The notes below the pieces were generated by a model. That model made no database searches, was not told the origin of the DNA, and saw only the letters and a program-made list of their open reading frames with translations. 64,000 bases of DNA from Antedon mediterranea. Taxonomy: Eukaryota; Echinodermata; Crinoidea; Comatulida; Antedonidae. A program made the translations under genes and the position numbers. Shown one piece after another: positions 9,601 to 62,227 of this stretch (its first letter is position 1; every line of letters starts with the position of its first letter). The stretch spans positions 9,730,501 through 9,794,500 of the forward strand of contig NC_092672.1 of assembly GCF_964355755.1 (NCBI RefSeq), read 5' to 3'.

Positions 9601-12600
9601 GGTGTATTGGAATATTTGTTGGGCCCAACTACTCAGAAGACTCATATTTCTATTCACTCTAATAGGAAACTTTTGCCAAAAGTGGCCATATGAATATCTC
9701 CACAACCACTGGTCAGAAAGTGATAATTGTGGTCTCAAATTGCTCGCAAAGTATATATTTATATTTGTTCTAATATAATAAAAATCATAAAACTGTCAAT
9801 AAACCCCTAATTTTGACCTTTGACATTTAGCCGGCACAAACATTCTGGGTTAGAGCACACTTTTCATATCTCAGAAATTGTTGGGTGGATATGGTCGTAG
9901 TTGGTGTCACAATACTCAGAAGATACATATTTCTACTCACTTTAGTGGAAAACTTTTGCCAAAATTGACCGTGAAACTTTCTTTTTGACCATTAGTCAAC
10001 AACCACTAGTCAGAAAGTTATAATTTTAGTCTCAAATTATTCGCAATATATATACAGGTATTTATATTTGCTCTAATACAACAAACACCTTATTTTGACA
10101 TTTAACCTGGTACAATAGCTGGTACAAACAATTTTGTGTGGAGCACATTTACATTTTTAATAACTAGTGAACATTGTCTTGCTTTAATATCAACATATCA
10201 GTGACTGTTGAGTATGGTACCGTAAATCTTCTTTTTAACCCTTGGTTATTATTCTTTGATTGTTTTTAGGGTGGGTTACTATTAGAAGTGGGGTAGCTAT
10301 TAGAGTAGTGGGTTACTATTACTAATCTTAAATTAGGCACCTGAAAATAGTAGCCCACCCCCTACTTTTCCGGTCAGCAACACATAGCAAAATAATAACA
10401 CAGTACGAATAAATAAATTTGGTTGAACTCTAACTTATTTTATCAACTCAAAACACTCAATCCTCCACCACTCTCGAGATCAACATGCATTATCTCCTTA
10501 TTTTCAAAATAGGACTGCATCATAAGTTTTTGTGACTCTAATAGTAAACCCCATTGGTTAATATTAGATCAGTGGGTTATTATTATTATAGATTGACTTA
10601 TAAGGTGGGTTACTATTAGAGTGTGGGTTACTATTAGGGTGTGGGTTACTATTACAGGATTTACAGTATACTATGGATACTTTGTATCGGAAGTCATAAA
10701 GTAGATACAAAATTCTATTCATTCTAAAGCCTAAAAAAAAATAGTTTGTTTGCTGTCATCCGCCGCCCCTAATTTCGCCAAAAATTTGGGGCGGAGATAA
10801 GAAAAAGTGTTTTTTTACGTTGAGGGCGCTTTTTAAAAACAGTTTTTTTAATGATTTTTTTGGCCGAAAAGGTGTAAAAATCGAAGGTGCGAGGATGAAA
10901 CAATAACAATAATAACGTAGCGTATATTTCGGTGTATAATCGTACTTTTGACACGCAAATTTAACCTCTAAATTAAGGGTGCGTCTTATACACCGAACAT
11001 AAATGCCTCAACACACACTCCGGTAAATGCTATACAGTAATACATATTTTTAAACCATAACAAATCAAAGTAACTGTAGTATAATACTATATATTATCTA
11101 TATATTATGTTATAAAGAAAATTGTTTATTTACTCGTCCTCTTTTTTGTTGAAATCACTAACTTATAATAATTTATAACTAATATTAATTAAAAAGCTTA
11201 CCATGTTTGTTATGACATTGTACAGTAAACCTTAAACTTCATACTACTCAGTATATGTGATTTTAATTAAAACTAAACATTAATAATTTAACAATTCTAA
11301 AAAACTTAGGTTTGTTTTATCAAAAAAAAAATTATTTTTACTGATATAACGAAGCAAAAAAACATTAACATAGTTTGCTAGAGGGTGCAGCTGAACTCTT
11401 TCTGGCTCCCCAACTAGTGGGGCATTTCGTATTTAAAAGAACACTGAAAATGTTACCATTACCATACATAAGGTTATGCTGACTGAACAAACCACTGTTC
11501 AAGTTAAATAAGACATTATTTTCCAAATGCTCGATATGAGAAAGGGCACATCATTCAATGTTTTGAAATGTACGTAAAAGAAATGAAAATAATAAAAGTA
11601 AATCTGTTAATACTCATCAATCATCAATACGTTATGATGCACAAGCCAAGAGTTGTTGCTAATTCCAATATAACAACAATTCAAAATTCACAAATCAACC
11701 AAAATCAAGTAAAAAAAGGGCAATAATTAAATGAAATTGGGTATTTTTTGTCTGTACAAATTTCTCTCATTTGCGTTACTCTAATACTAGTACTCACTAC
11801 AAATAGGACAATCTATTCAACTTCATTTAGTACACTTTGTTCAATTGCACATTACGACAAGTGCTCAAAAGTGGGTTGCAAAATCAAACAAATTTTGAGT
11901 TTTATATATGTCACAGGTCAATAACTATACTTCCTCTCATTTTTTAAACAAATCTTCCATTAAGCAGAATAGTAACATATATATTGTGAACAATCTGACA
12001 CCAAAATGAACTATCCACGTCAACCCAATAATGAGATATGGTAATTTGCCTGAAAAACAGATCAAAGGTCAAATACGATATTTCTGGTCATTATTTGAGA
12101 AAAAACTTCATTATAGTAAATAGAAATGTTTATGTTCTGAAAATTTTGACATCTAAGTCAACTCTCAATGACAAGTAGTTTTATGGATATCAAAAGATAT
12201 TAACCTTAATACAGTTGGACATTGCACCATAAAGGTCAAAGGTTAAAACTGGTACTTCCGGTCATTTTTTTCAAAAATACTTTATTAGAGTAGTTAGAAT
12301 TGTTTATGTTTTGAACACTTTTAGCTAAAAATCAACTCTCTATGCCCAGTAGTTTCAGAGATATTGAGTTTTTGAGCGAAAATGTCCGCCAATTTAAATT
12401 ATGCAAATTAAGTGACCCAAGGGATCATTTTCCGTGACGCCCATCCAAAAATCAATTCGTATAGGATGGGCAATCTGTATACCAAATTGGGTGTTTTTGG
12501 AAAAAACTGAACCAAAATGTCCCTAACAGACTCCACTATGCTAGTTGTTGATTGTGCTAATTTAAGGCCAACAAAAGATACGTTAGTGTCACCATGGAGG

Positions 12601-15600
12601 TATTTTTTACCTCCATGGTGTCACGTCCAGCTATTAGAGAACCATGACTTAAATACTTTTTTAAAATTTATTTATTGTTCGTTCAATTTTCTATCAAACT
12701 CATCACGATCGTCATTCGTTTCACGGTATATACACTTACTGTACATATATATTTAAAAAATCAAATCCTGCAGGTTAAACTATTTCTTTTTAGCTTACAA
12801 TAATATGATACAATTTAGATTTACACAAATAATACATTTTTCATATGTATTTATTATCTAACATGCCTTTTAAATAATTAAAAAGGAAGAATGTTTAATT
12901 ATCGATAAAATAAATCTATTTTCATCATAATCGGTTAAGTATTTAATGAGTTACAACCGAAAATAGAGTATCTGTATCTTACTTAAATAGCGCCCTCAAC
13001 TTCACAATTTTACTAAACATTATTAAATCCCTGCTACAAGTAACTAAACGTAATCGTTAATAACTTATGTTTGCCTTTTCACAAGCACATGTAGTTTACA
13101 CATTATTTCTAGTATATATTGGGTCAGTTTTTTTGAATATCTGAAAAAAAAAATAATTATGGCTTCTTGTCTTAATTAACATAATAAATATCGTATATCA
13201 CAGATTTTGCTGATTTTTTTGCCAAAATTATATATTTTTGCTTTAAAAAAGTAATATAATTCCAATAAAGTTAAAATAAAAATATTTTATTGAATAGATA
13301 ATGTAATTAGCTATTAATCAACATTAATTTCAACAAAATACATCAAATATTTATTAAGTTATGAACAATAAAGTGCATTACTATAAAATGGCGGCCATTT
13401 TTGCCGCCATCTTGGATTTCAAGATGACCGCAGTAAATTTGCAACGGCACACCTCGTGATTATTGTGTCTAAGAGTATTAGCTAACAAAAAAAGTTGGTG
13501 TGCTGAGTGTGTAGAAACATGGCAATGAGACATGTTAACGAAGCATCTTTTTGGCACTTGGACCTCCGCTTATTAAATTCATCAAAACTTAACACTGTAG
13601 GCCTACTTCCTACACACACACGATGACAATAAATAATAAAGCAGTCCTTGCAAAAAATGAATATACACAACCAAGCAACTACTTAAACGACCGATCAATG
13701 GATCTCCTTACAATGTTATTTTAGGAGAAAGAGATTGCCATAGATGTGGTATTGGTTCTTCATGGTATTGTTGAGCTTGGATTTTCGATTGCTGCCGTAA
13801 ATGTGTTGTCGCTCGATCTGTGTTGTCCTCCTCGACCATACCAGCAAATGCAAGTCAGTGGTTATGTTCAACATTATTTAATACCATAACCTATTCAGCA
13901 CTACAAACTGTCTACAAAACGAACGGTTTATGACTATTTCTTAATTAAAACACTTTACATAACGTCTTTTTATTTAAATACGAATACATTAAGAAAATAG
14001 TGCCAGCCTACAGACATACCACAAAGTATGTCTTAAAACAGTTTTCATACCAGTTTTCGAAACATATTATATATTTTTTTTATTTTTGTGTTTACAGTAG
14101 GCCTGCCTTATTTATTTATTCATTTATTAAAACAATACAATGATATTGTACATAGCATCGTAATCTATATTATGTTAGCTGTTATATTTAAATACGAATA
14201 CATTAAGAAAATAGTGCCAGCCTACCAAGATACCACAAATTATATCTTAACAGTTTTAATACCAGTTTTCCAAACATATTATTTATTTGTTTAGTTTGTG
14301 TTTACCGGCCTTATTTATATACGGTATTCATTTATTAAAACAATACAATAATATTGTACCTAGCATCGTAAAGCTATATTAATTATGTTAGCTGAAACGA
14401 ATTCACTAAAAAAGTAAAAAAACAACATCAAATTCGCCATATTAAATGATTTTTGACCGAATAAATAATAATTTTAATGTTTATCAATTCGATCTCTTAC
14501 AGTAGGTACTGCCCTTTCAAATGTTTCATATCATACTTTTATATTTTTTATTAAATTATTATTATTCCTTTCTTTTATAAAAATTTGAAATGTTGTTTAT
14601 GTATAATAATATGTATTCATTTGAATAATCGATTAATCAAGTTTTGATCAATATTACGATAATTATAGTATTAGGCTATTATATTACATTTGTCTAGGCA
14701 TCCTACACTCCTGGACAGCCAGTAGGAATACACGGTACCATACAATCAATGGAACCAGGTATATATACATATTTCTTTTTATTGCATTTTAAAAATTATT
14801 TACATGTTAGTTTATATATAACTAGCAATTATACCCGCCCCAGGGCGGGTTTCAAAATTAGTTTACAGCCTTCTCAGTACATAACACCCGACGCCAGTAT
14901 CTGTCTATACTCACCAACATCCACCCCTCAATAACACCCCATACTCTTTCTTAAAAACAAAATCTTCCCAGTGATGGACAAATTCAATTCAACCTAAGCT
15001 TCGAATTGAGAGGAGTATTCATAACTACGATGGGTCTAATAATGGTTGTAAGTACGTTGTAAATTGTGTAAATGAATAGGTGTCATATTGGCTGATAATT
15101 AAAATTTGTAATTTAGATACTGCTGGCACCCAGCCTTCTTTCTCCTTTCACCACCCCAGCCACCATCAACAAACCTTAACTCCTCCCCTGGACAGTTCAA
15201 ATTTAGTAACTTTTCCTAGTACAAACCAATCATATAGGCTACTTCATTACGCTAGTATTTTCGCTCCTCCTCCCCCTACAAAAAACACACCCCAGATACA
15301 CTGGGTGATCTGTTGAAGCCGGTTCCAGTACAATTTATATTATTATCACTCCCAACCCATAATCCCTCAGTGGCAGTTTTCAAATGTAGTTTAAAACATT
15401 CCAAATACAGTTTCGGTCATGGTGATAGGCCTACATGTACATCCCCACCCCAAACTCCCATCCGCTTCCCAGGGATGATTAGATACTTTAAAAGTTTCCA
15501 ACCACAATTCTGCTGTAAGCAAAATCCCCACTCTCTCCTGAAACCAAACTCCCAAACCCTATCTCCCAACCCCACTCTCCCACAATGTACGTTTTTTTCC

Positions 15601-16755
15601 TTGGAGGATTGGTGATGTAGTTGAACACAGTAACAGTAAACAACATGTGTATGTTCACACAGGTATGGATGTCTGTAATGAGGCAATCCAAGAGACCAAT
15701 AAATAGCTGGATATGGTTAAAGTACTTTGCTAAATATGTAATTGAATAGGTGTCATATTGTTTAATGAATAAAATATGTATATCTATATCTATATTTCCC
15801 CAAACGCCTTGCTGAGGATAATTCAAATACTGTAAAACTTTTGTAGTATAATTTTACAATTCGATAGCCTACAACCCCGAGCCCTAGCAAAAATGACATA
15901 ACAAACCACCACACAACCACCCCCCCACCCCCACCCATTCCACAAAAACCCCAGGAGTCGGGGGAATTTTTTAAAATGTAGTTTAAAACCTTCCGGGTAC
16001 AATTGCCATCATTTTGATACCCCATACGTATGGTTACGTGCAGACACAGACATTTTTATAACGAACAAACATCGAAAGTGGGGGTTTTGACCACATTTTG
16101 GTCCCTAACTTGGATCCTAGGCGGCGGATGATGTTGAAATATAGCTTAGAACATTCCCGGTACAATTGCGGTCATTTTGATACCCCATATGTAAGATTAT
16201 GTGCAGTAACAAAATTTTGTATAACGAACAAACAGACAAACAAACAAACAGACAAACTCTCTCACTTATAATATAGATAAATGTTATATTCTTTTTATTA
16301 TCAATTAATTATCTTCATTATTTTAATTGAATTTTAAACATATTTATGATAAAACAATGTATTTATTATTTAATTATGGTACGACAGAATTAGTATCAAG
16401 ATATTGGCGAGCTCTGATTTTCTGTTCATTTTGCAACACAGAAAGTAGATGAATGAATTACGAATGGTTTCGATTCATGTGAAACATTCACTTGCGTTGT
16501 GAGTTTGGAAATACTGTTTTTTGCGTACTGCAAATTATGCCCAAAATGTCAGCCTAAATATATGCATAGAGTTAAAACTATAGGTAATCTATTTAAAAAA
16601 GGTATTGACTTTATCTTTTAGTGTACCCTCAAGCACATGTGGTGGGTCAACCTAATCAGATGGTCATCCAACAAGATATTGCACCTTATGCTGCACTGAT
16701 ACACAATCCTGATGCACAACCGATTCAGACAACAGTACATCGATACACAAACTAG
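6662..16755 (+). CDS. MS4A-like four-transmembrane protein, complete, six exons
   Basis: Exons: 6662-6835, 7256-7315, 8273-8434, 13725-13853, 14698-14758, 16622-16755. Together they encode 239 residues with all phases consistent and a TAG stop. Four hydrophobic segments lie at about residues 22-42, 48-72, 79-104 and 133-162. TM1 and TM2 are close together, and a longer loop between TM3 and TM4 (about 105-132) carries Cys114 and Cys132. This is the topology and spacing of the MS4A/CD20-like family, whose members are membrane-spanning subunits or modulators of receptors and channels. Exons break between TM segments. The cytoplasmic tail is rich in Pro, Gln and Tyr. A CC-PP-RPY motif after TM4 suits a membrane-proximal palmitoylation or adaptor site (inference). 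Intron 3 is 5.3 kb because of an inserted foldback element. The family call rests on topology and sequence flavour, not on a search. Confidence 0.8.
9414..11417. mobile_element. Nested inverted-repeat element inside the foldback transposon
   Basis: About 46 bp at 9414-9460 (from TAGTTGGGGAGCCAGAAAG to CTCTAGCAAACTA) recur inverted at 11371-11417 with several mismatches, bounding about 2.0 kb. The interior holds diverged tandem segments (around 9660-9870 and 9950-10160, sharing ACAACCACTGGTCAGAAAGT-type words). It also has repeated GGGTTACTATTAG units at about 10265-10330 and 10610-10655. No transposase was found. It is either a second transposon nested in the first or an internal inverted module of it. 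Confidence 0.55.
12586..12624. mobile_element. Micro-palindromic insertion A with 7-bp direct repeats
   Basis: A 25-bp insert (12593-12617) has arms CATGGAGGTA and TACCTCCATG around five T. It is flanked by exact copies of GTGTCAC at 12586-12592 and 12618-12624. Termini and flank length match the inserts at 22047, 59057 and 62193. It lies inside the foldback transposon, so it inserted after that element arose or travelled with it. Confidence 0.8.
13971..14396. repeat. Tandem duplication (~212 bp, two copies) in MS4A intron 4
   Basis: Copy 1 is about 13971-14183 and copy 2 about 14184-14396. Shared words include ATTAAGAAAATAGTGCCAGC, CATTTATTAAAACAATACAA and TATATTATGTTAGCTG. Copies differ by substitutions and small indels, so the duplication is not very recent. 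It lies wholly in the intron between exons 4 and 5. Confidence 0.75.
14820..16285. mobile_element. Dispersed repeat with CCCGCC...GGGCGGG head and AAAC/AGAC tail
   Basis: The start carries a hairpin (ACCCGCCC CA GGGCGGGT, 14832-14849). The end is a run of ACAAACAAAC/CAGAC words followed by TTATAATATAGATAA. Three diverged internal repeats at about 15387, 15977 and 16140 share TAGTTTAAAACATTCC and TGATACCCCATA words. GAATAGGTGTCATATTG occurs twice. No long coding frame is intact. Heads and tails of this style belong to widely dispersed invertebrate repeats, but I cannot name the family. It sits in MS4A intron 5. Confidence 0.5.
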
Positions 16756-17592
16756 CAACTGTAAACAAGTAGGGGGAAATTTACGGATTTGTAATCCAGA
16801 AAAATATTGACAGCACATATTTTAATTTTTTTTAAACATAGGGTGACAGTTTTATAATGTTTTTATATAATATAATAATTATTGCATAATTATTATAATT
16901 ATTTATTATATACAGTATAGAAACACATAATAATCACGCGTTATAAATATTAAATATACACAGTTATAATATGGAATAATATCAATACGGTACTCCTTTA
17001 AAAAGGGGTGAAAACTCACACTAATTCCACGCAAAGAAAAGGTAAATATTCACTCCCATTATAAAAGTGAACATCTGACCAATCAACACACTTGAAAAAA
17101 AGTGCTTAGAAACAACCAATCAGAAACTTTCATGCACGCGTCTTCTTACCATCATGCTACAGAAGTCTCTTAAATTGCCGCCATCTTAATATTAGACCAA
17201 ACTTTGTGGCAATGAACAAGACTTACGGTACTTTACAAATGTATTAGAACGATAGAGAAGGAATCCCATGCCAGTTAGACGGTACATGAAAATTAATAGT
17301 AAGTACTACTAGTGAAATAAGTAGACCTGAGCTAGCCTCTCGGTACGGGCAGGTTAGCCTGCCTTGACCTTGCCTGGTCGCTGAGTTACGGTAGGCTTGG
17401 ATAAGGAGTACCGATACTGGGACCACGGGATCACTGCATCGCTCATCACCGGCGGTCAATTCAGGCCTTTACCTAGCTAATCAGTAGTAGTATGGCTAGC
17501 TGCCAGATACTAAATTACAATTTATAATTGTTATTTTTAGTTGAATTATAAATAGGTAAAACCAGGGAGTTAGTAAAACAATGTAATACTGG
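16756..17592. other. MS4A 3' flank, nothing recognised
   Basis: The MS4A 3' untranslated region probably starts here. No clear AATAAA was found close to the stop. No coding frame or repeat was recognised. Confidence 0.4.
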
Positions 17593-18113
17593 GAGGTTTC
17601 GCAACCTTACGAATACGATAACGAAAACGGATACGTCATACATTTGTGAAACTTTTTAGCTCATCCTTTCTTTGCTGATCCCCATCTCATATTCCTAAAG
17701 CGTATTTGTGTTGACGAATATCACCAGTCATATTCGTAACTACAAAACGAGTATAGTTTTTGATCTATTTTGCACATTTTGCATTTGAATTAGGAATGAT
17801 TCATGATTATAATATAATTATAGATTTATTGAAAGTAATTTACTAAAGTAATTTACTAAAATGCCAGGTCAATTTAGATAAATAGCAGTTTTTAAAGTCC
17901 TCACTCGCTTTGATGTTACGCTAGGCCTAGGCAGCCAAGCACCAAGCAACACGTACCTGCGCTTCGCTCAAATTTACCGCAGTCATAATTATTTTGGACG
18001 CGCCTCGATATTTCGTTGCCATGCGAAACAGATTTTTTTATGGCTTACGAAAACGAATACGTGTGCGTGACGTATCCGTTTTCGTTATCGTATTCGTAAG
18101 ATTGCGAAACCTC
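17593..18113. mobile_element. MITE-like element, 521 bp, 46-bp terminal inverted repeats
   Basis: The left end GAGGTTTCGCAACCTTACGA continues through ATACGATAACGAAAACGG to about 17638. The same 46 bp occur inverted at 18068-18113 with one mismatch. The interior has no coding frame; it holds further TTACGAAAACGAATACG words near the right end and an ATTCGTAACTAC word. A clear target-site duplication was not found. It is a non-autonomous DNA transposon of unknown superfamily. Confidence 0.8.
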
Positions 18114-21100
18114 TCTATTGTATGGTTATCTTTTGTTAACTCGAAAATTCAATCGAAAGAATGAGAGTGAGAAGTTCACTCTAATTATGTTTTACTTAGC
18201 GTGATTCACTTGTCTAGTGTAGGCCCAGTAGGGCCTACAGTCTAAAAGTAAGATAGAAATTAAATTATAGACCGTCACAATTACCTATTTATTAAACTAA
18301 ATCTGCCAAAAAGGGTAATTTCAATAAGATCAGCCTAATTACTGAAAACAAACATTTTGTTTTAGTAATGACGCCCTCTATTACTGAGGTATGTAAATTG
18401 CATTTACTACACGATTTTAGACAATTGTATAATGCATAAATAAAAATAAACCGTCTTGGAAGGAACCAACAGATAAAACCTTTTTTTAAAACATATTATA
18501 GTTATCATTTAATCTATTTCAAATGTAAACTATGTAATTATAAAACCATTAACACTATTCTTATGCTACCAAATCCACAGCCTTACCCTACATTTGCGCC
18601 GCATTATAGCATAAAATATGAACAAACAATTAATTGGTTATAAAACAAATAATATGAAACCTAAATTTAAAAATGTCAATTTACCTCACTTCAACACTGT
18701 TTAAAAAAACCTATTTAGTATTGTTTTATGTATTATTTGAAAAAGTAATAAAATAAAACAATATTGCCCTTCTCTCTTCTCCTTCTTCCTTGTGAAATGT
18801 TATGCATGAAGTGAAACAACTTTATATTAGGAACAGTAAACAGAGTATAACATGTCATTTTTTACTCATCGATCCCACAAAAAAAAATCAATCAAACAAT
18901 AAACAATCATGTGTTGGTTAGATATACATAGTGCAACAATCAACAAACCGCTTGGAAATTATGTACTAGTGTATTTAGTAAAACTTTCAAAAATCTCCCA
19001 ATAAAAGGCAAATTAAAAAATATGATATTCCTTAATGATATGACTATTTTGGGCCCACGGTATCTCCCACGGTTAAGGTAATTAAATACACAGACGAGCG
19101 GTAACGCCTCTATAAGCACCCTTACAGATCTATTAGGATTTCCGACCGGGCCGTATTTCTGATCTTAATATTATAAAGGTAGCCTAGACCTATATCTGTT
19201 TAATACCTCCATGCGTCGCTTCAGTGGGATCTTTTACAAAGTGAACAGTTGAAATTATAGACCTACGGATCGCCACCCAGGCAGCACATTTCAAGTACAG
19301 TATTATGAACACAATTCTGCATTTGTGGAAAAAAAAAAAAACAATGTATGGTACGACTGAATAATCTGTCTAGGCTCAAATTTAAATCATTGATTTGCAA
19401 AATTATATATAGGTGAATTTTGTCTTAATTCTTAAAACGAATTATTAAAATATGTATGGCATTTTTGTATTAGAATAATTTTTCTATTTTATTAAGATCG
19501 TGATTTCAATATTTTGGCTGGTTTCAGTTTAGTCGTGCAAATCACGTAACTGCTTTGATTATCCATGAAAAAAAATTAGTTATTTCTCCATGATTTTTTG
19601 TTTGGAGGTTTGCATGGCGAAATCTAATGTTGATATCAAGTTTGTGGTACACCCCGTTTATTAGTTCTGAAAAGAACTGTTGAGTGTCTCCATGACTATT
19701 TTCTTTTTCTTCTTTATAAACTGGAGTATATTTTGTATTAAAGATTATTATTTTTCACCACAGAGGTTTTTATCGTGATTTTAATGTTTGTGCTGATTTC
19801 AGTTTAATACGCAATTTGAGTAAAATAACTTCTCTTATTACATTATCATACGTTTAATTATTGTTAGTTTTTTTATGATTCTGATGAATTCAGATTCTTC
19901 TGTTTCCTTCTTTATTATAAACAGGTAATAAATAAATGGTTTTCATTTTGTATTTGTTTCCTGTATCATTATTATCTGCGTATATAATACAAAGGTCACG
20001 GGTTTTACAAGTAATACGTGTCCGGATAGTTAGCGGATTTTTCTTGATTGTACTGGTATTACTTTTAATCCGCAAAAACCAATACTGAAGAACTGTTCCT
20101 TTTGCTTTCCTGTATGAAGAGAGACCTTGAATGACTATCTCAATGTTAAACTAAATACAAAACGCTTGGAGAAGTTGATTCACTGTTTTATATAGGCCTA
20201 AGTATGCCTGAAACTCTCTCTATATCTGTTTTTTGTACAGGTATTTATTAAAACTCCGTAGGCCTACGGTTATAATAATTATACAGAACTGTACCGAAAT
20301 GTCATCTATCATCTAACAATTTTGCATAACAATTTAACAGTGATAGCTCGGGGAAGTACAAGGTGGTCTTAGTAGATATTATGTTGGTTTATGACAATAA
20401 TTATCATGAACTTGATAGGCCCTATTGATCCTATGTTTTTTACTCCATATCCCCTTTACAGCTTTAAGATCGCGCTGTGATGATTGGTCTGTATGAAAGC
20501 ATGTTTGACTATCATGGAAATAGAAACTACAGCCGAATAACAACTGTTATGTCATATAATAGATTCATTAAGCGCATTATGTGGAAATAAATTACTCGAT
20601 CCAGCCCGTTTTCTAGGTCCAAACAACGACCGGTGACGCAATAAATATCACAATTTAACGAACAATGGCTATGATAACAATATCATAATTATTTAAACAA
20701 CCTACTCGGTGTCTATGACTTCGACGTGACCTCAGAGATTCGGGTACGTAAATTAGTAATTATATAACAAGTCCATTCTCGAAATGCAACCATTCGAAAT
20801 TGACCTAGCATCAACGCTAAATAACATACTGGCCTGGTCATGTTTTATATCATTGCAAAGACCAGGATTCCCAAATCCCTCCACCAGCAACCCCTCATTT
20901 TTTATAAGACAACACAATATAATATATCACATAAACTCTACATGCACATCATAGAACGGAACACGGCATCGTGTAATTTACACGAATCCTTGATTGGCTA
21001 TTTAGTTTATTATTAACCTGAGAAGAAGAACTTCTATTGTACCGGCGTATTGTAGCAACGTGCGTATGTTTACACAGCACTCCTGTATGTAGACATGCAA

Positions 21101-22039: not shown

Positions 22040-22086
22040 GTGAAACCATGGAGGAAATATACAGTATATTTCCTCCATGGTGAAAC
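22040..22086. mobile_element. Micro-palindromic insertion B with 7-bp direct repeats
   Basis: A 33-bp insert (22047-22079) has 15-bp perfect arms CATGGAGGAAATATA and TATATTTCCTCCATG around CAG. It is flanked by exact GTGAAAC at 22040-22046 and 22080-22086. The first eight bases match insertion A; the centre does not. Confidence 0.85.
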
Positions 22087-22133
22087 TAAGAGCTTGTTCG
22101 CACTTAGATACAATGTAGGCCTAAGGCCAATTT

Positions 22134-22471
22134 ACACATACGAGCGTTAACGGTAATAATAACAGGATAATATAATAATAATAATAATAATAATAAGATT
22201 TTTATAGCGCACATACCACTCCAGAGTGCTCAAGGCGCATTTAAAAAAATAAAAAAGAAATAAATCATACAAATTCCTGAAAAATAAAATGCAATTTCAT
22301 CCGTTGTCGTTCTGTCGCGGTCCCGGACCCCTATAGAGGCCTATGTTACACACAACGCGGAGCGGACGGGCGGTTTCGGCTCAGGATAGATACTGGTACA
22401 GATTAATTCTACGTGGGACAAGCTACGCGGTTTTCCGCTTACCGTTACCACTCGTCTGTGTAAATTGGCCT
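22134..22471. mobile_element. MITE-like element with 33-bp TIRs and internal ATA microsatellite
   Basis: AGGCCAATTTACACATACGA continuing to CGGTAA (22134-22166 at most) recurs inverted at 22439-22471 with three mismatches over 33 bp. Inside are an (ATA)n tract at about 22172-22195 and a TTTTATAGCGC...GCTCAAGGCGC module. A similar TTATATAGCGCC module follows a TCAA microsatellite at 38431-38520. No coding frame is present. The target duplication is unclear. Confidence 0.65.
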
Positions 22472-27110: not shown

Positions 27111-27153
27111 GGTGCAAAACAGAGTGACAATATGAACAGACCACGTTTACCGG

Positions 27154-28778: not shown

Positions 28779-30190
28779 GACGGTATACATTGAGTACGGT
28801 ATCATCGGATACGATATGCAACGTACGGAGCATCAGCACAGATGCATTGAGTTACGGTATACATTGAGTTACGGTATACATTGAGTTACGGTATACATTG
28901 AGTACGATATACATTGAGTACGATATACATTGAGTACGGCATCATCGGATAAGATATGCAACGTACGGAGCATCAGCACAGATGCATTGAGTTGCGGTAT
29001 ACATTGAGTTACGGTATACATTGAGTACGATATCATCGGATACGATATGCAACGTACGGAGCATCAGCACAGATGCATTGAGTTACGGTATACATTGAGT
29101 ACGATATCATCGGATACGATATGCAACGTACGGAGCATCAGCACAGATGCATTGAGTTACGGTATACATTGAGTTACGGTATACATTGAGTACGATATAC
29201 ATTGAGTACGGTACATTGAGTACGGCATCATCGGATACGATATGCAACGTACGGAGCATCAGCACAGATGCATTGAGTTGCGGTATACATTGAGTTACGG
29301 TATACATTGAGTACGGTATACATTGAGTACGGTACATTGAGTACGGCATCATCGGATACGATATGCAACGTACGGAGCATCAGCACAGATGCATTGAGTT
29401 GCGGTATACATTGAGTTACGGTATACATTGAGTTACGGTATACATTGAGTACGATATCATCGGATACGATATGCAACGTACGGAGCATCAGCACAGATGC
29501 ATCGAGTTACGGTATACATTGAGTACGGTATACATTGAGTACGGTACATTGAGTACGGCATCATCGGATACGATATGCAACGTACGGAGCATCAGCACAG
29601 ATGCATTGAGTTACGGTATACATTGAGTTACGGTATACATTGAGTACGGCATCATCGGATACGATATGCAACGTACGGAGCATCAGCACAGATGCATTGA
29701 GTTGCGGTATACATTGAGTTACGGTATACATTGAGTTACGGTATACATTGAGTACGATATCATCGGATACGATATGCAACGTACGGAGCATCAGCACAGA
29801 TGCATCGAGTTACGGTATACATTGAGTTACGGTATACATTGAGTACGGTACATTGAGTACGGCATCATCGGATACGATATGCAACGTACGGAGCATCAGC
29901 ACAGATGCATTGAGTACGGTATACATTTGAGTACGATATCATCGGATACGATATGCCACGTACGGAGCATCAGCACAGATGCATTGAGTTACGGTATACA
30001 TTGAGTACGATATACATTGAGTACGGTACATTGAGTACGGTACATTGAGTACGGTATACATTGAGTACGGTATACATTGAGTTACGATATATACATTAAG
30101 TACGGAATTATATGAGAAACGTATGGAGCATCAGTACACTAGATGCATTAAATTACGGTATACAATGAGTACAGTACGGTATACGGTACC
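28779..30190. repeat. Composite minisatellite, two interleaved unit types
   Basis: Unit type 1 is a 17-18-mer of the form GTATACATTGAGTTACG, present dozens of times with or without the extra T. Unit type 2 is a ~55-mer from CATCATCGGATACGATATGC to ACGGAGCATCAGCACAGATG. It has 12 near-identical copies and one decayed copy at about 30117. Copies of unit 2 are separated by one to five copies of unit 1, giving irregular higher-order spacing of about 70-140 bp. Long minus-strand frames run through the array only because the units lack stops in one frame. Confidence 0.95.
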
Positions 30191-48262: not shown

Positions 48263-48327
48263 TTTCAGTATATCACCGGGCGGTTTAGAATTTATTCTGT
48301 GCCTTTGATGTTTATATATATATATAT

Positions 48328-48500: not shown

Positions 48501-48683
48501 ATATATTTTGTCATTTAAAAATAAAAAATAAAATATCAGGTCTGATTGGTTCTGGTTATACATTATTTATACTTATTGAACTACATTTCTTCTTTATTAA
48601 ATTTCTTGCATATATTTTCTGATAAATGTATGTGACTCTGATATAGATATTTTTAAAATGAAAAACAAAAACAAACAATACAT

Positions 48684-52874: not shown

Positions 52875-54228
52875 GTTTCCAATACTTTCTCTAAATGATC
52901 TAAAAAACAACAACAAAAGATATCATTAATTTTGTCGATGGACTCAAAACAAGTCTGTCACTGTCTCGTCCTCATAAAATTATTTGTTCAGTTTTAAATA
53001 AACATAAAGAAACCTTGTTAGTCTTTCACAGAAAACCATAACTAAAATCTTTAATAATTGAGTCTTCTAGAATAAAATTGATAAACCAATTAATACAAAT
53101 ATGTTATTTTAGGGAGTGTTGGTTAGGCCTACTGAATATAGCGATGATGAATTTGAACTAATAATATCATTATAAGATTAATCTCATACTTTTTTCCAGG
53201 CCCTTTTAGACCTCTTAGTAAGCCGACGGTAATACAAAATGGGGTCATGGTCATGGTCTCTTCCCCCTGCTCTACAAATGATTTTCGCTGGTCTGCCTGG
53301 TCTAGGCTATAGCAGAGAGAGTGTAAGATATAGTAGCTATATACTGCTGGTCCCCTATTCTGTTTATAATAAAATAGAAAAACAAACTTAATTTATCAAA
53401 CAATATTATTATTCGTTACCTGTACAGTAAGTTTATCGATCTTGCTTTAAGCTTTCATGAAAACATGAATATAATGACGGAAAATGTTCTTCTTATGGGA
53501 ACTGGGCGTGGTGTAAGATTTTCGGCAGATGTGGGGTTTTTCCAATAATCATTTTGGAATTCCCCATTGTAAATAACGCCACCAACGTGCACGAGAAGAA
53601 CTTACGTACTTTATTTTTAAAATACCCGCTTTATTTTAAAAAACGTCATAAAAAGGAGCCACGTTTATTATTTCTAAATCCTTGATATGACTTTCAAAGT
53701 GGCTTTTAAAACTTTGTGTCATGTCTGTCTGACAAAGAACTTGCATCGAGCAGCTCCTTATTTATTATTTATAGGGCATACCCATAGGATAGGCCTACTA
53801 TGAGAGAGGATTCCATTCACGGCCTGATTTTTTTTCCTAATAATTTATTTCTAATAATTTCTTTCTGCTTTATTCCACTATTTCAGGCCCACGATATTAT
53901 ATTATACAATGGCACTAAAAAGTAGTAGGCCCACGTCTTAACGTTAGTAATTATGTTATTTCATCAATTAGGCCTAATTGTCATTGGTGTTGATAATGAA
54001 TACAAAGTAAGTAGGCCTACTATATCCATGACTTAAGTGAATCGTGCTTTCAAAATGTTAGTATTTCTTATTTACATTAAATATCAGACGGTTGTGGTTT
54101 TGTATCAACTCTTGATTCTTTACCGAAAAATGTAAGGCGCGAATTAATTTTTTTACTAGTTCAATCACCCCGGGAAAATTCTTACAAAGTATATAGCGCC
54201 CTCTCTGTTAACTAATTCTAAATGAGAC
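52875..54228. other. Divergent intergenic region between the TRIM gene and the plus-strand gene at 54229
   Basis: The TRIM exon begins at 52899. A minus-strand donor-like site (CTGTACAG/gtaacg) at about 53421 suggests an upstream non-coding exon and a promoter near 53450-53550. The plus-strand gene starts at 54229, so this region may hold two divergent promoters about 0.7 kb apart. No TATA box stands out. Scattered TAGGCCTA words. Confidence 0.4.
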
Positions 54229-57200
54229 ATGGCTGGATTTGCAACCGTAAAGATGACCACGGACATGATAAATAAAGATTCTCTTTCAACTGGTAAGTAA
54301 AATCATTTAATTGCTACTACATTTTATAAAATGATACAATATCTTCCTGCATGTTGAATTGCAATTTTATGTCCGTTAGCCGTTTGGAATTTACCGGCGA
54401 TTTTCTTCCACTGAAATCTAGGCCTCGGCTGCTAAGCACGTCGCGATGGCCTACTCAGCACTTGTTCAAGAAGTGGTTGGTGTCAATTCGCCTGGGAATA
54501 AATTCGCATTTTCCAAACAACGTCGATATTATTGAAATTGCCAATGAGCAGTTGTTAGAAACGTTTAGAAAATCTAAACTACTACCGTACTCAATTAGAT
54601 TTTTTGATAACTCATCACACCTACCACTAGCTAGTATAACTTAAGAAATGGTTTTTATTTATACGATTGTTTGCAAAGGGCATTCACCCAACAAGATGAT
54701 CCGAATATCCCCCTTATTCAAAATATAAAGCCCTGTTTCCATAATGGTCAATGAATGTACTCAGCAGAACTGATGCTTTTCAGACTATTATTCTCCCTTG
54801 AGGCCTATTTCATTCTAAATTGTGTGGTTGTAATTTACAACTCCTAATGGGTTTACTGAATGTATAGATTATTAATGGATCATATCTCTCTGGATGTTTT
54901 GCTATCAGATATAGTTATAATTATGCTAAATTTGGTATTTCTGTCTCAAATATCATAATTTGCATTTTCTGGTTCCATTGAATTGATGAAATAATAAATT
55001 AACATACTAATAAAATAAATTTAGTTTAGTTAATATTTTCTAGTAGTATAGTTTCTTTGGCAGAAATTAAAAAATATAATAAAAATTCCTCTGGACATAA
55101 TTCCTTATTGCTCACCTATACACGGCGGAACATCCAGCATGAATCCTGCTAGTAACAGAGAACTGGAACTGGAACAACTTTGAATCTAGTCAGCCCTTCA
55201 TGAAGAATAAACGCTACAGGAAAGCAATTTTAATTTTTGAATGAAATTACAATTTAATAGCATGATTTTCATAGGATTAGAATTTTCACAAATTCCTCTG
55301 TTGGCCTACAGCTATATATCTGAAATGTTATTTCATTCAGAGTCCCATAAAGAATGGGCCTGGTGTGTACCTTTAAAGCTAAATTTATAAATATTGTTTT
55401 AGATAATGATGTGATAATATGCACTATTTATCAAATGTAATAATTTAATGTGATTTAATGTGATTTAAGAATTTGGTATAAAACCATATTTAATTCTGAA
55501 TAATTTCAACTTGATTAGATCGCTTAAGAAATTAGCCCTCGGGGGAATTTGTATGATCTTGGAGGCATCAACTGGGTTGCACTACAGGATAGAGTGACTC
55601 AGTCTTATATGTTTAAGCCAGAGTAGCTTTGACAGCTAAATGTAGCAAAGAAATTGGCATTTAAATATAGTTTCTTACAAATTACTGAGGCGCTGCTTTT
55701 GCAGATTGAACATGTCCTGACGTTTAAGTAGCAAGTAGGCTTGGCTAGGCATTTAATGGGATTTGAATAAATCTCCAATTTCCATAGTGTACTGCTATAA
55801 GCTAACGATCATTGCTAATTTTCTATAAAGATATATTATTAGATAAAAATGCAATATATCTCGCAGGCCCTTGGCAGAACAGAAGGAGGTCAGGGTTGAA
55901 AAACTTTCCACGACCTGTTTCTGTTAAGCGAGAGAATATGGTTTTAAAAATGTTTTAGTATTTTTACAGCCAATAGCATAACTACCATCCCAGAGATAAA
56001 TGCTCCTTTAGTACCCCTCTACAGAAATGAAATAATCCATCAACCATGCCATTTTTTAGGCATCATCATGTCCCAACGTACCACCGATTTCATAACTGCC
56101 TTTAAAATCCTTTTTCCAATGTTTTTTGTATCGAAGGCAGATCCAGGAATTTTATAATGGGGAGTGCTAATATTCACAAGTGCTAACCTTACCCTGGATC
56201 TGCCCCTGTGTATTTACTTACATTAATTTAGTGTGGTAATTGAACAAACCATGAGTTTCAACAGATATTGTTGTCAGTAAAATATCTAATTAAATAATTT
56301 CTCCGTCTAAATTTTGGAGACTAACGTTGACACGGCAAATTTGAAGGGTACACACCTGTAAAGGAGAATCCTATGCAAATTGTACTATGTGAACATAGTA
56401 CAAATTTAAGTTGTGCAAAGATTTAAATTGTTATTTGGTGCCTTTCAGTTTTAGTTCTAGATTGAGGAATTTCTAGTTTTCTGGCGCCAGCAGCATGTTC
56501 CGGGTGCATAACGTTACAGGGACGGCCCTATTTATATAAAAACTCATGTGACACCCATGTTGTATTAGTAGATAGATAGATAGATAGATACAATTTTATT
56601 CGTCATAAAATAAGTAAAATTACATTATGAAAATTGTCTTCCTTGGCAAGAATATAAAATTTAAAAAGACCATATTTAAAATATTACTAGTGTTAAAAAT
56701 GCAACTGCATACTTTTCAATATTTGGAATACTGTTGTGAGATACTGTAAGCATTTAAAATGCTATTTACAGTAGTATTACACATCATGCTACACCCCATA
56801 CTGCTTCATTCCACAAAAACATGATGGTCTAAACTGAATTAAATGGCAAGAATGTTTATGTAGCAAGTATTGGGTGGTAACCCTGTAACTATTTTCATCC
56901 CTCAGGTAGACCAAAACATTAGCTTAGGTTTCAATGCAATGTCTACCAATTGAACTTTGTACTTGCTGTTCTGCACTAAGTTTACCATGATTGGTATCAG
57001 ATCCCTGAGATATTTGTGAAACATGTTTACATTGAATGTGAACATGAATTGAGAGTTTTATAGGTACTGAGATCTAAACTTTGTATAAAATTTGTTTTTG
57101 TGTAATATGTTGATAATTAATATGGGTATAGTACAGCACATCCACTTAATGTGTCACAACCTAGTATGTTATATTACATACAGTACATTACTGTATACAG

Positions 57201-60200
57201 ATAAAGGTGACATGATGAATATGTAATGAAGGTCAAAGTACAGATCTTTATTCAAATTTTGAATTTTGAACTACTGTACTACCTAACAATCTAGGCTCGC
57301 GCTAACCGCTCGCCAATTCGCCAATGGCGACTGGAGTCTCCATTTGGCGAAAATAATTATTGCCTCGTTCGCCAAATTGGCGAAAATACATTTCCAAGCC
57401 TAGGCCTAGCCTGGTCGGCGTGACTTCTTATGGGAGCGAGAATTCGCCACACTTCGGTACTTTCTGACTCGGGTACACTTTTTACCACAACAGCATTTTA
57501 TGTGACGACGTCACGATCGCCGTGTTCATTTTTTTAGTTCTGTTTAAACATGCGCAGAGCGTGCCTCGATGACGTTTTAATGACACACAGTTAATGTGAT
57601 TGGTTCGTGGCCGGTCGTCGTCGACGTGATGATGAGCGAATAAAAGGGGAAGTCCCTATTTTTCGACGTAGAAAATGAACTTCGAGAAGAAAATGTAAAC
57701 AGAAACATGTGGACGAATACTTCCGTAAACGAGGCTGTTCTGTTATTTAAAAAGGGGAATTTTAAATTTAACAAAGTAATTACCTCAATAGTATAATGTT
57801 AACATGTTTAATTTTATTTCCCTTTCGATTATTCTAACCGAAAGTTGCGCTTTAAATTGAATAGCTAAGAAACAACGTATACTACAACGGCAACCCTGGC
57901 CAAAGCGCGTTTCTGCCGCCTACATAGAATGGGTTACGGCCGCTGCATAGCAAATTCAAAGCTTCTTAAATTTCTGTGGTACATTTCTTCCTAACGTACT
58001 TGTTTTATATAATAGATTGATAAATATTCCACTTATTAAATAATTTAATAAATCGGTAAAATTGACGTTTCGAAGCAAGTATTCCATGATGAGAGGCGAC
58101 ATTTTTCGACATGCCTCGTGTGCGGCGAATACTAGTTCAGAAAATGGAACAGTCCACTGTGCGGGGGTTATCCAATCATTAATTAACGCGCTAATACCTA
58201 GGCGACGGTAATTTAGTAATAAGCGGAGAACTGAATCCCCCGTAAGGAAAATGGTAAACACTGATATTTATGGTAGGGATTATTTTTTTCAGTGGTTGGT
58301 CTTGTTGGCTTCTTCGCACCAGGTCCACGCAAAGTCAAATAAAACGATGTGGTTTATCAAACAGAAATATAAATTAGCTTTAATTCATTACTAAATTAGC
58401 CAGATTTTGATAATGAGAAAGGCTAAAAAATTGTTATCGTTAAAATTGACATATGAGGCGGATGTACATAATAATAATAACCGATTTACATATCAAAATA
58501 AAGAGTATTTAAAGCCTGATAACATGCAACAAAAATTACTCCACCACCTATTATGGACCTCGTGCGATCGGGTGCGAAAATGGGTAGGTGTTTTCCAAAG
58601 TTATTTTTAGCGCGCAGATTTCGGCTCGCCGGCTTTTGTACCTCATTTTTAACTCGTGTTTTCTATTAAAATATTTAATAAACATAGATTAAAAATATAT
58701 AAAAATAATCCCTTAAACAAGATCTTTCCAGGCATATAATTTTTATTCTCATGGGTACATAAGAAATAGTATATTTTTAACTTCAAAGACACGTCACTTT
58801 TTGAAATTTCACGAACGTGTTAAAATCGCGGTAACGAAAATCAGCTTCATTGGGATAAATAATAATAATATAAATGTAAAAGAAGTAAAATAACAAACAA
58901 ATACATGCATTATTTATTTAATAAACATTTTTGCGAATTTTTATGGTTTTTTAAATTTGGCTAAAGGATTTTCAATTTGGCTAATGTTTTTCAAAACCTT
59001 TCGCCATTTTGGCGAACGAAAATTTGACCTTAGCGCGAGCGTAGACAATGTAAGAGCAGGGAGTTGTAAAATATTTTACAACTCCCTGGTAAGAGCCAGT
59101 ATGTTATATCCATCCTATATTAAAATCTATTTCTTGCCTTACTAATACCTGGATAAACTGACAATTAGTCTCTATCTCCAAAGAGAGGAATACATTTATG
59201 GAAATAATATAATTGTAATGTAATTGTTGAATGTCATTTTGCATCTATATTTAATTTTTATCAAGTTTGTGTGGTCCAAATGTTTCGTATTGTGATGGAA
59301 AATGCATTAACCATATTGGTTGGTGTAAAGATATTGAGAAATAATTTGTAAAAATCTTCTGTATGTATTCAAATTCAACTATAAAAGTGGAGTTTAAAAT
59401 GTTTATATTTTCAATAGGCTTATCAGTGCAGTAATAAAGCACTTAAGTATGTACTTTGTAGTTTTAATCTACTTGGTTATTTATTGCCTCATTAATCTTG
59501 GCCTACTATATGGTCTTCGTTAATTAATAGCTTAATAAACTATTCAATCTAGCATGTGAAAATACAACCATGGTTTTTCTACCATAAATACAATATTTTC
59601 AATAGTTTGCTTATTTTAATCTAGTGTAGGCCTACTTTTTTCTCTCATCTAATTGTTCTTACATTATTTTACATCTATTTTACACAGTAACTTTGTCATT
59701 AGAAAATATTGTATATTCCAGCCTCATTGTTTCAAAACTTCAGCCTTATGCAGTCAACATAAATATCTATAGTACCATCTTGATACTGTATGTACATGTA
59801 TCTATGTAGTAGGCTTACTGATGAAGTCTTGTCTTTGAAGTTATTTGAAATATGTAGTAACTGTTACATTTGACTGTAGTGTTCATGCAGAGATGATTGA
59901 AAATGTATGTATAATTATTCAATAAAAAAAAATCATTGAATGCCTATAGTTTTTTCACATGACCCTAAATCATCACATTATTTTGTCTATTTTGTGTATT
60001 TTTGCATTTAACACATTTATGTTGGCCTAATATTCTCCGAAAAATTGAAATATACCTAGGTTTCCATACAATTGCTACACAGCACAGTACAGTGTCAGTA
60101 TACATACTGATGCAACAGAAATTTCAACAATTTTGTGACATAAGCATCTTAGTGCCACTGACCCAAATATAATATGATCCAATAATTTGTGGATGCTACA

Positions 60201-62046
60201 GTCATAATTCTTGGCAATCAAATTTTGATTTTAAACCCAATTTGTGCTGCACAAAATTTATTCTGTAAGGTTTGACCAGTTAACGTGACTGAGTAATTTC
60301 CTTTTGATCTTCATAAAACACTGTGTCTTCTATTTAACTGGATGAATTAAAAGTTTTTATTTGTTACAAGTGGAAATACATATATATATATAAGGCATGT
60401 TTATGATGCATAACGGTGGAAAACTGTTTTAATCTATCTCTAAAATAGATGAAAAAATATAATTTATATATTATTTAAAAAAAAAAAAAAAAATTTTGGA
60501 TGATTGGCTATGAAAAATGTGAATATTACCCAGGATGCAATGTCGTTTGGCGGTAGGTAAAATGTTGTACATTCTAAAAGTAGTGATTGTATATTTTAAC
60601 CATTTTCATAAACTAGTTACTTTATTAGAAATTTGTCTTTTTTCTGCTGACAAGAAATTGGGGGCATTTTAATTGTACAGTTGTTAATTATTTGTCTGCA
60701 GTAGAAACAGTTCCTTATTAAAGTAGCTAAAATAAGCAATTGCTATAATTTAGGTTAGAGTCAAAGGATTATTGATGACATTAGAAACAAATTATTTAAT
60801 TTGATTAAAGTCAGACATATAATTAGATAGATTAGTATACTGTGAATGCCTTTTAATTATTTATTTAAATGCTTGTTGGGATGTATTAATAGAAGAAACA
60901 AACTTCAAGAAGAGGAATATTTTCGGTTTCTGTGAATTGGTTTTTTCATTAACATTTGTTTTTGTTGCACTAAATGGTAGCTTAAATGATAGCTCAGGGT
61001 ATAAAGTTCCTAATTTTTTTTCCAGCCATGGAGCGAGCAAGCGTTGTGAAGTAAAAATGTGGAGTTAAACAGGACTTTTTTTCAAAAGGTATAATTTTAG
61101 TACAAACATTGCTACAGTACTACAGTACGAGAACAGTTTTAGGGTCGAAATTGAATGAATTGTATGTCTTTTTGTATGACAGACTTGACCTCAAAGAACT
61201 TAGTTTCAGTTCTTTTTGTTGACAAATTAGTTTGTTAACCGTTTTGTTCTTTTCAAGGCATTTACGTGAGAATTAACCGTATTCATTGCTTGGCAAATAG
61301 CCTGCAGACATTGCCTCTTAACTCATTAACCACTGTACACATATTAAGCAATTGTTGTAATCGTAAGAAACGTATGGGCTACAAACATCGTGTTTCTAGC
61401 CATGGCAAAACAAATGGTCTGGAAATAATGAAGTAAACGAGGATTTGCTAATTCTGTATGGTAAATTGACAGAACTCTTGGTTCATGATCGAGTCATAAT
61501 CATAATTAATGATGTGATCACGCAATATATTTCATCCAAAATATGAAATTAACTATAATTTTCAAATAATTTCTTTGATTTTAATATTTGGTTTATCATG
61601 CCTAGCTTACTTGGATAAACCAAACATAGCCCACTCTCTCTCTGTAAAGAGGATACAATAAACATGATCAAGTGTTTAAAAAGTGGTCTAATGAAATCTG
61701 TAGAAATATATAGGAAAAGAAAGAGATTAGTGGGTAGCTGTACCAAAAATATAATATCGTCCAAACATAAAATGGATGTTTTTCTTATAAATATGAAAAG
61801 GTAAATATGATGAAAGGAAACATTGATTTATTTTTAAAAGGTGATAATTTAACACCCGGAAATTATCATCTTTTTCAAATTAGTGATCATCATAGAAGAA
61901 AAACAAGTGACATCTGGGCACAGTATGGTTTCCTTGTCCCACGGCCGAATACTATAAGTAAAATGTTTACAATTTGTGTAGGAAGCAAGCGGGATATAGC
62001 GTCCTATAAAAGTATACACTTTGGATTGTCTCAGGCATTTATGTAA
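54229..62046 (+). CDS. Hypothetical small plus-strand gene, possible two-exon model
   Basis: Exon 1 (54229-54292) starts GAGACATGG and encodes MAGFATVKMTTDMINKDSL plus ST, ending in a consensus donor (ACTG/gtaagtaa, phase 1). A frame at 61841-62046 of ordinary amino acid composition (includes DIWAQYGFLVPRPNTISKMF) ends in TAA. AATAAA follows 17 bases later. Its acceptor (tttatttttaaaag) has the matching phase, so a join gives 89 residues. The join is my inference: the acceptor is weak, the intron would be 7.5 kb, and missed internal exons are possible. Exon 1 is better supported than exon 2. I do not recognise the protein. Confidence 0.3.
54293..57289. other. Presumed intron / non-coding
   Basis: No supported exon. 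The 97-codon frame at 54351-54644 begins inside the presumed intron without splice support. At 56394-56417 there is a palindrome TTGTACTATGT GA ACATAGTACAA. A (GATA)n tract followed by ACAATTTTATTCGTCATAAA at 56570-56640 looks like the end of a dispersed repeat. Confidence 0.4.
57290..59045. mobile_element. TIR element (~1.75 kb) with subterminal hairpins
   Basis: The left end TCTAGGCTCGCGCTAA recurs inverted at 59030-59045 with one mismatch. Just inside each end lie hairpins of the type TTCGCCAA-A-TTGGCGAA (57369-57385 on the left, TTCGCC-ATTTT-GGCGAA on the right). CAA occurs directly outside both ends, perhaps a short target duplication. The GC content and CpG density are higher than in the surroundings. 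The longest internal frame (101 codons, 57956-58261, minus) is not recognised. It is probably non-autonomous. Confidence 0.65.
59050..59095. mobile_element. Micro-palindromic insertion C with 7-bp direct repeats
   Basis: A perfect 32-bp palindrome (59057-59088) with arms CAGGGAGTTGTAAAAT and ATTTTACAACTCCCTG and no loop. It is flanked by exact GTAAGAG at 59050-59056 and 59089-59095. It sits four bases beyond the right end of the TIR element. Confidence 0.85.
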
Positions 62047-62063
62047 ATTTGTAAAATTTGCTC

Positions 62064-62069
62064 AATAAA
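62064..62069 (+). terminator. Polyadenylation signal AATAAA
   Basis: AATAAA lies 17 bases after the stop of the 61841-62046 frame, with a T-rich, TGT-containing stretch about 15-25 bases further on. This fits a 3' processing site and is the main support for a terminal exon there. Confidence 0.4.
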
Positions 62070-62185
62070 TATGTGGTACTTTATTATGTCTAGTATGTCT
62101 TTATTAACATTTTCTGCATTAAATTAATTACCAAAACAGTATCCAAAAACAACCTTAATATTCATGATAGCCTGAAATATTATTA

Positions 62186-62227
62186 GAATAAACATAGAGA
62201 TATTATATAATATCTCTATGGAATAAA
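62186..62227. mobile_element. Micro-palindromic insertion F with 7-bp direct repeats
   Basis: A perfect 28-bp palindrome (62193-62220) with arms CATAGAGATATTAT and ATAATATCTCTATG and no loop. It is flanked by exact GAATAAA at 62186-62192 and 62221-62227. Confidence 0.85.

What the first reader, a model, noticed from the sequence alone, without database searches (positions are those of the whole stretch)
12586..62227. A family of micro-palindromic insertions (25-33 bp) with 7-bp target duplications
Four loci share one structure: [7-mer][CA(T/G)(G/A)GAG ... CTC(C/T)(A/C)TG palindrome][same 7-mer]. A 12593-12617 flanked by GTGTCAC; B 22047-22079 by GTGAAAC; C 59057-59088 by GTAAGAG; F 62193-62220 by GAATAAA. 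All flanks are exact, differ between loci and start with G; C and F are perfect palindromes without a loop. A shared terminus plus a constant-length, locus-specific direct repeat is the signature of transposition. Yet each insert is barely longer than two inverted termini and the centres are unrelated. They could be the smallest mobilised units of a DNA transposon with 7-bp duplications, or products of a repair process that duplicates 7 bp and copies a hairpin. I know of no described family like this.
Basis: partly seen in the sequence, partly recalled or inferred. Interest (0 to 1): 0.9.

Follow-up and report, generated by a model that had tools for sequence, protein, structure and literature searches.

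The report
Excision scars of P-type transposons
The tiny palindromes are scars left where P-type jumping genes cut themselves out and the cell rejoined the break; this animal genome holds thousands of them, a natural record of transposon excision and DNA repair.

Summary
In detail: all four inserts (A, B, C, F) have exact 7-bp flanks, and the pattern is far above chance. Genome-wide, CATGGAG-N0-20-CTCCATG occurs 2228 times against 10 for the reversed control.

They are not mobile micro-elements. They are excision scars of P-superfamily (P element/THAP9) transposons. P transposase cuts 17 nt inside its own ends, so excision leaves [TSD][up to 17 nt of the left end][up to 17 nt of the right end][TSD]. 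Joining the two inverted ends makes the palindrome, of 34 bp or less unless repair adds bases.

Four lines of evidence support this:
- Three P-like families here have known long ends. Each has scars made of only the first ~17-18 nt of those ends (20 at most in the CATGGAG family, where the tract was part-selected).
- One dispersed repeat has different scars (1-32 bp) at the same GTTTGAC site in different copies, and 22 places match its empty site with a single GTTTGAC.
- A 6.6-kb element with CATGGAGGTATAAAAAAGAAGGAG... ends encodes a P transposase.
- Published Drosophila P excision junctions have the same anatomy.

Unusual are the scale (order 10^4 by rough extrapolation) and serial reuse of one site.

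The parts
12586..12624 (.). Scar A: TSD GTGTCAC (12586-12592), 25-bp insert CATGGAGGTATTTTTTACCTCCATG (12593-12617), TSD (12618-12624); family with end CATGGAGGTATAAAAAT
   Evidence: exact in the window; family end identified
22040..22086 (.). Scar B: TSD GTGAAAC, 33-bp insert CATGGAGGAAATATACA + GTATATTTCCTCCATG (17 + 16 nt), TSD
   Evidence: 17+16 split read directly from the sequence; full-length parent of this sub-family not located
59050..59095 (.). Scar C: TSD GTAAGAG, 32-bp perfect palindrome CAGGGAGTTGTAAAAT/ATTTTACAACTCCCTG (16 + 16), TSD
   Evidence: same tip CAGGGAGTTGTTATTAG beside a scar in L115; full-length parent not located
62186..62227 (.). Scar F: TSD GAATAAA, 28-bp perfect palindrome CATAGAGATATTAT/ATAATATCTCTATG (14 + 14), TSD
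   Evidence: full-length parent not located
17556..17579 (.). Probable fifth, asymmetric scar: TSD GTAAAAC, 10-bp remnant CAGGGAGTTA (same tip as C, the other end trimmed away), TSD

Best explanation
The inserts are germline excision footprints (scars) of several related P-superfamily cut-and-paste transposons. A full-length element with CA(T/G)(G/A)GAG... ends inserted and duplicated 7 bp (sometimes 8). Its transposase later excised it, cutting exactly at the element's 3' ends but about 17 nt inside its 5' ends, so each side of the gap kept a 17-nt 3' tail of transposon end. End joining of the two tails, with trimming, short annealing or small added tracts, left TSD + up to 17 nt + up to 17 nt of inverse complement + TSD. 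The palindrome follows because the two tails come from inverted repeats. Shown here: the anatomy, the TSDs, the ~17-18-nt limit against long ends, P transposase genes, same-site scar series, and empty-site sequences. Inferred: the cutting and joining steps in this species, which rest on Drosophila P biochemistry.
For: Positive control 1: a 3.4-kb P element family with 7-8-bp TSDs has ends CAAAGATCTTATATACTAAAGATGTGACAC... and a P transposase (PF12017, PF21787). It has its own scars: 31 pattern hits against 1 in control, 15 with exact 7/8-bp TSDs. In these the end is kept to 17-18 nt, once 19 by coincidence, and never further although the end runs past 30 nt. Positive control 2: a 5.55-kb element with ends CTGAGACAACAATCAAAGAGATTGG..., 7-bp TSDs and a P-like transposase has scars 82 against 0; the maximum retained prefix is 17 nt. 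CATGGAG parent: the copy at C6:31438.9-31445.5 kb has ends (CATGGAGG)TATAAAAAAGAAGGAGATTCAACTAGCT and, like its 99.5% copy in L028, a P transposase ORF. Other CATGGAGGTATAAAAATAG(A)AGGAGAGAGCT... ends exist, including a 111-bp copy with exact TSD GTCAAAT (L141). Same-site series: copies of one repeat carry inserts of 17, 20, 20, 21, 18, 14, 13, 32, 20 and 1 bp at one GTTTGAC, and a recurrent 34-bp CATGGAGGTATAAAAAT|ATTTTTATACCTCCATG (17+17) in a neighbouring slot; 22 places match the empty site. Laboratory match: Drosophila P(wa) junctions, e.g. acccagacCATGATGAAATAAC(AT)GTTATTTCATCATGacccagac, plus forms with added tracts (PMC2895639); 17-nt staggered cut (PMC7776569).
Against: No fully intact CATGGAG element with both ends and matching TSDs was seen: the C6 copy lacks the first 8 nt at one end, and the L028 copy lacks the other end. 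Parents of the C, F and B sub-families were not found. The exact overhang (17 or 18 nt) is not resolved; a few CATGGAGGTATAAAAATAGAT scars keep 19-20 matching bases. Annealing at microhomology is not above a random-join null (20 of 38 against 47% expected), so the repair pathway is not shown. About a quarter of CATGGAG pattern hits lack a TSD of 7 or 8 bp (decay, composite events or chance).
Confidence: 0.94

Rival explanations
1. The inserts are themselves mobile: ultra-short MITEs, two end sequences back to back, inserted as units by a P-type transposase acting in trans.
For: They have a conserved tip and a TSD, and identical inserts occur at different sites with different TSDs, e.g. CATGGAGGTATACCTCCATG.
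Against: At one site in different copies of one repeat the inserts differ, down to 1 bp. Insert interiors match only the outer ~17-18 nt of long ends and in Drosophila would lack the internal transposase-binding sites (PMC7776569). Identical short scars recur because a few joins are favoured, as in Drosophila (14 isolates of one junction).
Confidence: 0.03
2. The inserts are extreme internal-deletion derivatives of P elements, made when gap repair from the sister copy is aborted, rather than direct end-joined excisions.
For: Longer deletion derivatives exist (L141, 111 bp with TSD), and Drosophila repair includes incomplete synthesis followed by end joining (PMC2895639).
Against: Any synthesis into the element would keep end sequence beyond 17-18 nt; the scars stop there.
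Confidence: 0.03
3. The inserts come from a superfamily other than P with 7-bp duplications (Dada-like, hAT, Mutator) or from a transposase-independent palindrome-forming repair process.
For: The 7-bp TSD is shorter than the 8 bp of Drosophila P; other superfamilies have TSDs of 6-9 bp.
Against: The end-bearing elements encode P-type domains (PF12017, PF21787, PF21788), and the best solved relative is the Drosophila P transposase. From general knowledge, other cut-and-paste families leave only a few bases of their ends.
Confidence: 0.02

Closest known systems
Drosophila melanogaster P-element excision junctions (P(wa) assay, PMC2895639 Table 1)
   Same: TSD + up to 17 nt CATGATGAAATAACATA + up to 17 nt inverse complement + TSD; the same kinds of trimmed, annealed, blunt and tract-added joins; tip CATG.
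   Different: 8-bp TSD there against mainly 7 bp here; made in an assay in HR-deficient flies, not a natural genome-wide set; different end sequence after CATG.
THAP9 / Pdre elements of zebrafish (PMC10983969)
   Same: P-superfamily transposase with ends starting CAT; active excision shown.
   Different: 13-bp ends and 8-bp TSD; no scar population reported in the text that was searched.
Stowaway/mariner and mPing excision footprints (PMC4561436)
   Same: Small scars at empty donor sites that include the target duplication.
   Different: By general knowledge these keep only a few bases of the element's ends, not 17 from each side.

Membership tests
P-element excision footprint | Duplicated target flanks both sides of the remnant | tested here: met
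   34/46 exact 7 bp and 1/46 exact 8 bp for CATGGAG; 15/31 exact 7/8 bp for CAAAGATC; all four window sites
P-element excision footprint | Remnant is made of the outer end sequence of a P element resident in the genome | tested here: met
   CAAAGATC and CTGAGAC families; CATGGAGGTATAAAAA family. Parents of the B, C and F sub-families not found.
P-element excision footprint | No more than 17 nt retained from each end (17-nt staggered cut) | tested here: met
   CAAAGATC halves: 17-18 nt, one 19, none 20 or more, against ends over 30 nt; CTGAGAC maximum 17; recurrent 34-bp 17+17 scar. 17 against 18 not resolved; CATGGAG family up to 20, in a part-selected set.
P-element excision footprint | Different junctions arise from one insertion | tested here: met
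   At least ten different inserts at one GTTTGAC site in copies of one repeat
P-element excision footprint | Empty pre-insertion site has one copy of the target | tested here: met
   GGTRAG-GTTTGAC-CGTATA, 22 matches, control 0; wider flanks of these matches not read
P superfamily transposon (parent) | P/THAP9-type transposase with RNase H and GTP-binding insertion domain | tested here: met
   PF21787, PF21788, PF12017; phmmer to Drosophila P transposase 6p5a, E 3e-9 and 1.5e-14
P superfamily transposon (parent) | Long terminal inverted repeats with 7-8-bp TSD on an intact CATGGAG element | tested here: inconclusive
   Ends found, but the two large copies are each damaged at one end; a short derivative (L141) has both ends and an exact TSD
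Autonomously mobilised micro-MITE | Same unit inserted independently, with internal transposase-binding sites | tested here: not met
   Inserts differ at one site and can be 1-4 bp; nothing beyond the outer end is retained
Polymerase-theta end joining products | Microhomology use above chance and templated inserts | tested here: inconclusive
   Overlap of 1 nt or more in 20/38 against 47% in a random-join null; added tracts seen in some scars longer than 34 bp

The most novel reading that the evidence does not exclude
In this animal's germline, P-type elements are lost mainly by end joining rather than restored from the sister copy, and the duplicated target next to a scar stays a preferred target. 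The same site is therefore entered and left again and again, writing head-to-tail [7-mer + scar] arrays that record successive transposon visits.
Probability: 0.35. Interest if true: 0.65.

Novelty: new member of a known kind. Interest (0 to 1): 0.5.

Why it matters
Each scar is a dated-by-context record of one germline excision and its repair, with the break known to the base. Thousands of them turn an assay that needed engineered flies into a comparative data set: which joins are used, how much is trimmed, and how often a P element leaves without being restored. They also show that tallies of intact elements strongly underestimate past P activity: 35 PF21787 matches against thousands of scars. 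For annotation, such palindromes should not be named as a new MITE family.

Tried and rejected
(1) L046 (407 bp, CATGGAGGAAATATACA ends, TSD TTATTAT) looked like a P MITE. The search showed that its interior (positions ~18-373) is a common repeat (1692 candidates) lacking those ends, so it is a different repeat sitting inside a scar-like site. (2) The CATGGAGAAATAAGTTAGGTT pattern gave only 5 single ends and no pairs; the L024 one reads as an asymmetric scar. (3) The pair of identical ends at C4:13125127-13125627 is a ~0.5-kb inverted duplication that includes its own flanks, not an element with two ends. (4) Microhomology-driven joining as an explanation of the perfect palindromes was not above a random-join null. 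(5) The inverted repeat in the window was tested as a source of an empty site for A; its arms do not cover A. (6) My length limit is soft: 447 hits with longer gaps exist, partly composite or with added tracts. (7) KolobokP, another animal DDE group, has 3-5-bp TSDs and was set aside (PMC9587614).

Full report
OBSERVATION. The four inserts are as described. A 12593-12617 (GTGTCAC), B 22047-22079 (GTGAAAC), C 59057-59088 (GTAAGAG) and F 62193-62220 (GAATAAA) have exact 7-bp flanks. A window scan for 7-mer, CA..TG inverted-repeat insert, same 7-mer finds these four and nothing else, while 20 shuffles gave 3 hits in all. The window lies in a 354-Mb, 18-contig eukaryote genome. CATGGAG-N0-20-CTCCATG occurs 2228 times there against 10 for the pattern read backwards. 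With a gap of 21-51 it occurs 447 times against 7. In 46 sites fetched with flanks, 34 have an exact 7-bp duplication, 1 an exact 8-bp one and 4 a 7-mer with one mismatch. The TSD prefers the partly palindromic GTT(A/T)AAC, so 'starts with G' is a bias. In window plus P-locus DNA not chosen for scars (64 + ~153 kb) a strict rule finds 4 + 5 inserts against 2 in reversed sequence. This suggests on the order of 10^4 in the genome, a rough extrapolation from a small and not random sample.

WHAT IT IS. The shape suggested P-element excision scars: P transposase cuts 17 nt inside its ends (PMC7776569; PMC10983969). Three predictions were then tested.

First, P-type transposons should be present. 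The genome has 13 matches to the P transposase HTH domain, 35 to the P RNase H domain and 24 to its C-terminal part. Four loci hold a 3.4-4.2-kb element with ends CAAAGATCTTATATACTAAAGATGTGACAC.../CAAAGATCTTATAATCTAAAGATAGG..., and three of them show a 7-bp and one an 8-bp TSD. Three near-identical loci hold a P-like transposase, and two of these, read in full, are a 5.55-kb element with ends CTGAGACAACAATCAAAGAGATTGGAAACGCT, 7-bp TSDs CGGACAC and GTTTATA, and a 794-aa ORF. Domains: PF21787, PF21788 and weak PF21789 for that ORF; PF12017 and PF21787 for the CAAAG family. The nearest solved protein is the Drosophila P transposase.

Second, such families should have left scars limited to ~17 nt. 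The CAAAGATC pattern gave 31 hits against 1 in control, 15 of them with exact 7/8-bp TSDs. Examples are CAAAGATCTTATATACT|AGTATATAAGATCTTTG (17+17) and CAAAGATCTTATATAAGATCTTTG. Retained prefixes peak at 17-18 nt, with one at 19 and none at 20 or more, although the real ends go past 30 nt. The CTGAGACA pattern gave 82 against 0 with a maximum prefix of 17 nt. The CTGAGAC family's scars were predicted before the search.

Third, the CATGGAG family should have a full-size parent. A 6.6-kb copy on C6 ends in CATGGAGGTATAAAAAAGAAGGAGATTCAACTAGCT on one side and TATAAAAAAGAAGGAGATTCAACTAGCT on the other, the first 8 nt being lost there. A 99.5% copy in L028 has the full tip on the side that C6 lost, but lacks the other end. 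It encodes a 616-aa ORF with P domains. Other long ends CATGGAGGTATAAAAATAG(A)AGGAGAGAGCT... occur, one in a 111-bp derivative with exact TSD GTCAAAT. Scars of this family carry CATGGAGGTATAAAAAT(A) but not the following GGAGAGAGC. The set was selected for 18 matching bases, so it shows the stop, not the distribution; a few scars keep 19-20 nt.

SAME SITE, DIFFERENT SCARS. A dispersed repeat (at least 40 copies) carries at one GTTTGAC site CATGGAGGTACTCCATG, CATGGAGGTAGTACTCCATG, CATGGAGGTATACCTCCATG, CACGGAGGTATTACCTCCATG, CATGGAGGTATATCCATG, CATGGAGGTATATG, CAGGTACTCCATG, a 32-bp form, CATGGAGTAATTACTCCATG, or a single G, depending on the copy. Further GTTTGAC copies bound CAGCTCCATG, CATG or the 34-bp 17+17 scar. 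The sequence with both flanks and a single GTTTGAC occurs 22 times, control 0; I did not read the wider flanks of these 22. This is what repeated visits and imprecise departures give, and it excludes a unit that moves as such. The head-to-tail arrays mean that the duplicated target was used again. Hot-spot insertion into many copies and independent excision after amplification of the repeat are both possible; I did not separate them.

MECHANISM. Shown: duplicated target, end-derived remnant, ~17-18-nt limit, resident P transposases, junction series, empty-site sequence. Inferred from Drosophila: staggered cut, 3' tails, end joining. The Drosophila table lists the same products, e.g. acccagacCATGATGAAATAAC(AT)GTTATTTCATCATGacccagac and forms with added tracts (PMC2895639). 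Which repair pathway acted is open. Overlap at the join is not above a random-join null (20/38 against 47%; perfect palindromes 10/38 against 17%). The palindrome therefore needs no special process: it follows from joining two inverted ends.

NOVELTY. The kind is known. I found no paper in the open-access library that describes a natural, genome-wide set of P excision scars or serial scar arrays, but that library lacks most subscription journals. The host species was not identified.

LIMITS. TSD statistics come almost entirely from the first 7 Mb of one contig. Parents of the B, C and F sub-families were not found.

Noticed in passing
window 8701-9343 and 12834-13476: Inverted repeat arms, 96% identical over 643 bp, about 3.5 kb apart.
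   Followed up: partly
window 28780-30090: Complex tandem repeat of CATTGAGTACGGTATA units with nested periods (15-17, 74, 91, 108, 121, 303 bp).
   Followed up: no
L028:7253-8209 (-) and L031:2950-3408 (-): The large P-like elements (6.6 kb and 5.55 kb) each carry a second ORF facing the transposase gene, with similar-looking C-terminal parts and no Pfam match; possibly an accessory protein of these elements.
   Followed up: partly
L139 (G000:C4:13125087-13125680): Near-perfect ~0.5-kb inverted duplication containing a P-type end, its flank and a stretch that looks tRNA-like or SINE-like, arms back to back.
   Followed up: partly
L046:2578-2984: A common ~355-bp repeat (1692 candidate copies) with (TA)n at one end sits inside a CATGGAGGAAATATACA scar-like site.
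   Followed up: partly
L115 (G000:C1:2816773-2816907): At the end of a GTTTGAC scar array a further end, CAGGGAGTTGTTATTAG, of the same tip as window site C, follows the last GTTTGAC; different P sub-families seem to use the same target.
   Followed up: no
L143/L144 and other places: A repeat starting CATGGAGGTATAAAAATATGTTTGAATCTATATAT occurs many times with identical flanks (251 bp identical in the two read); it is a larger repeat that contains a P-type end, not independent scars.
   Followed up: partly
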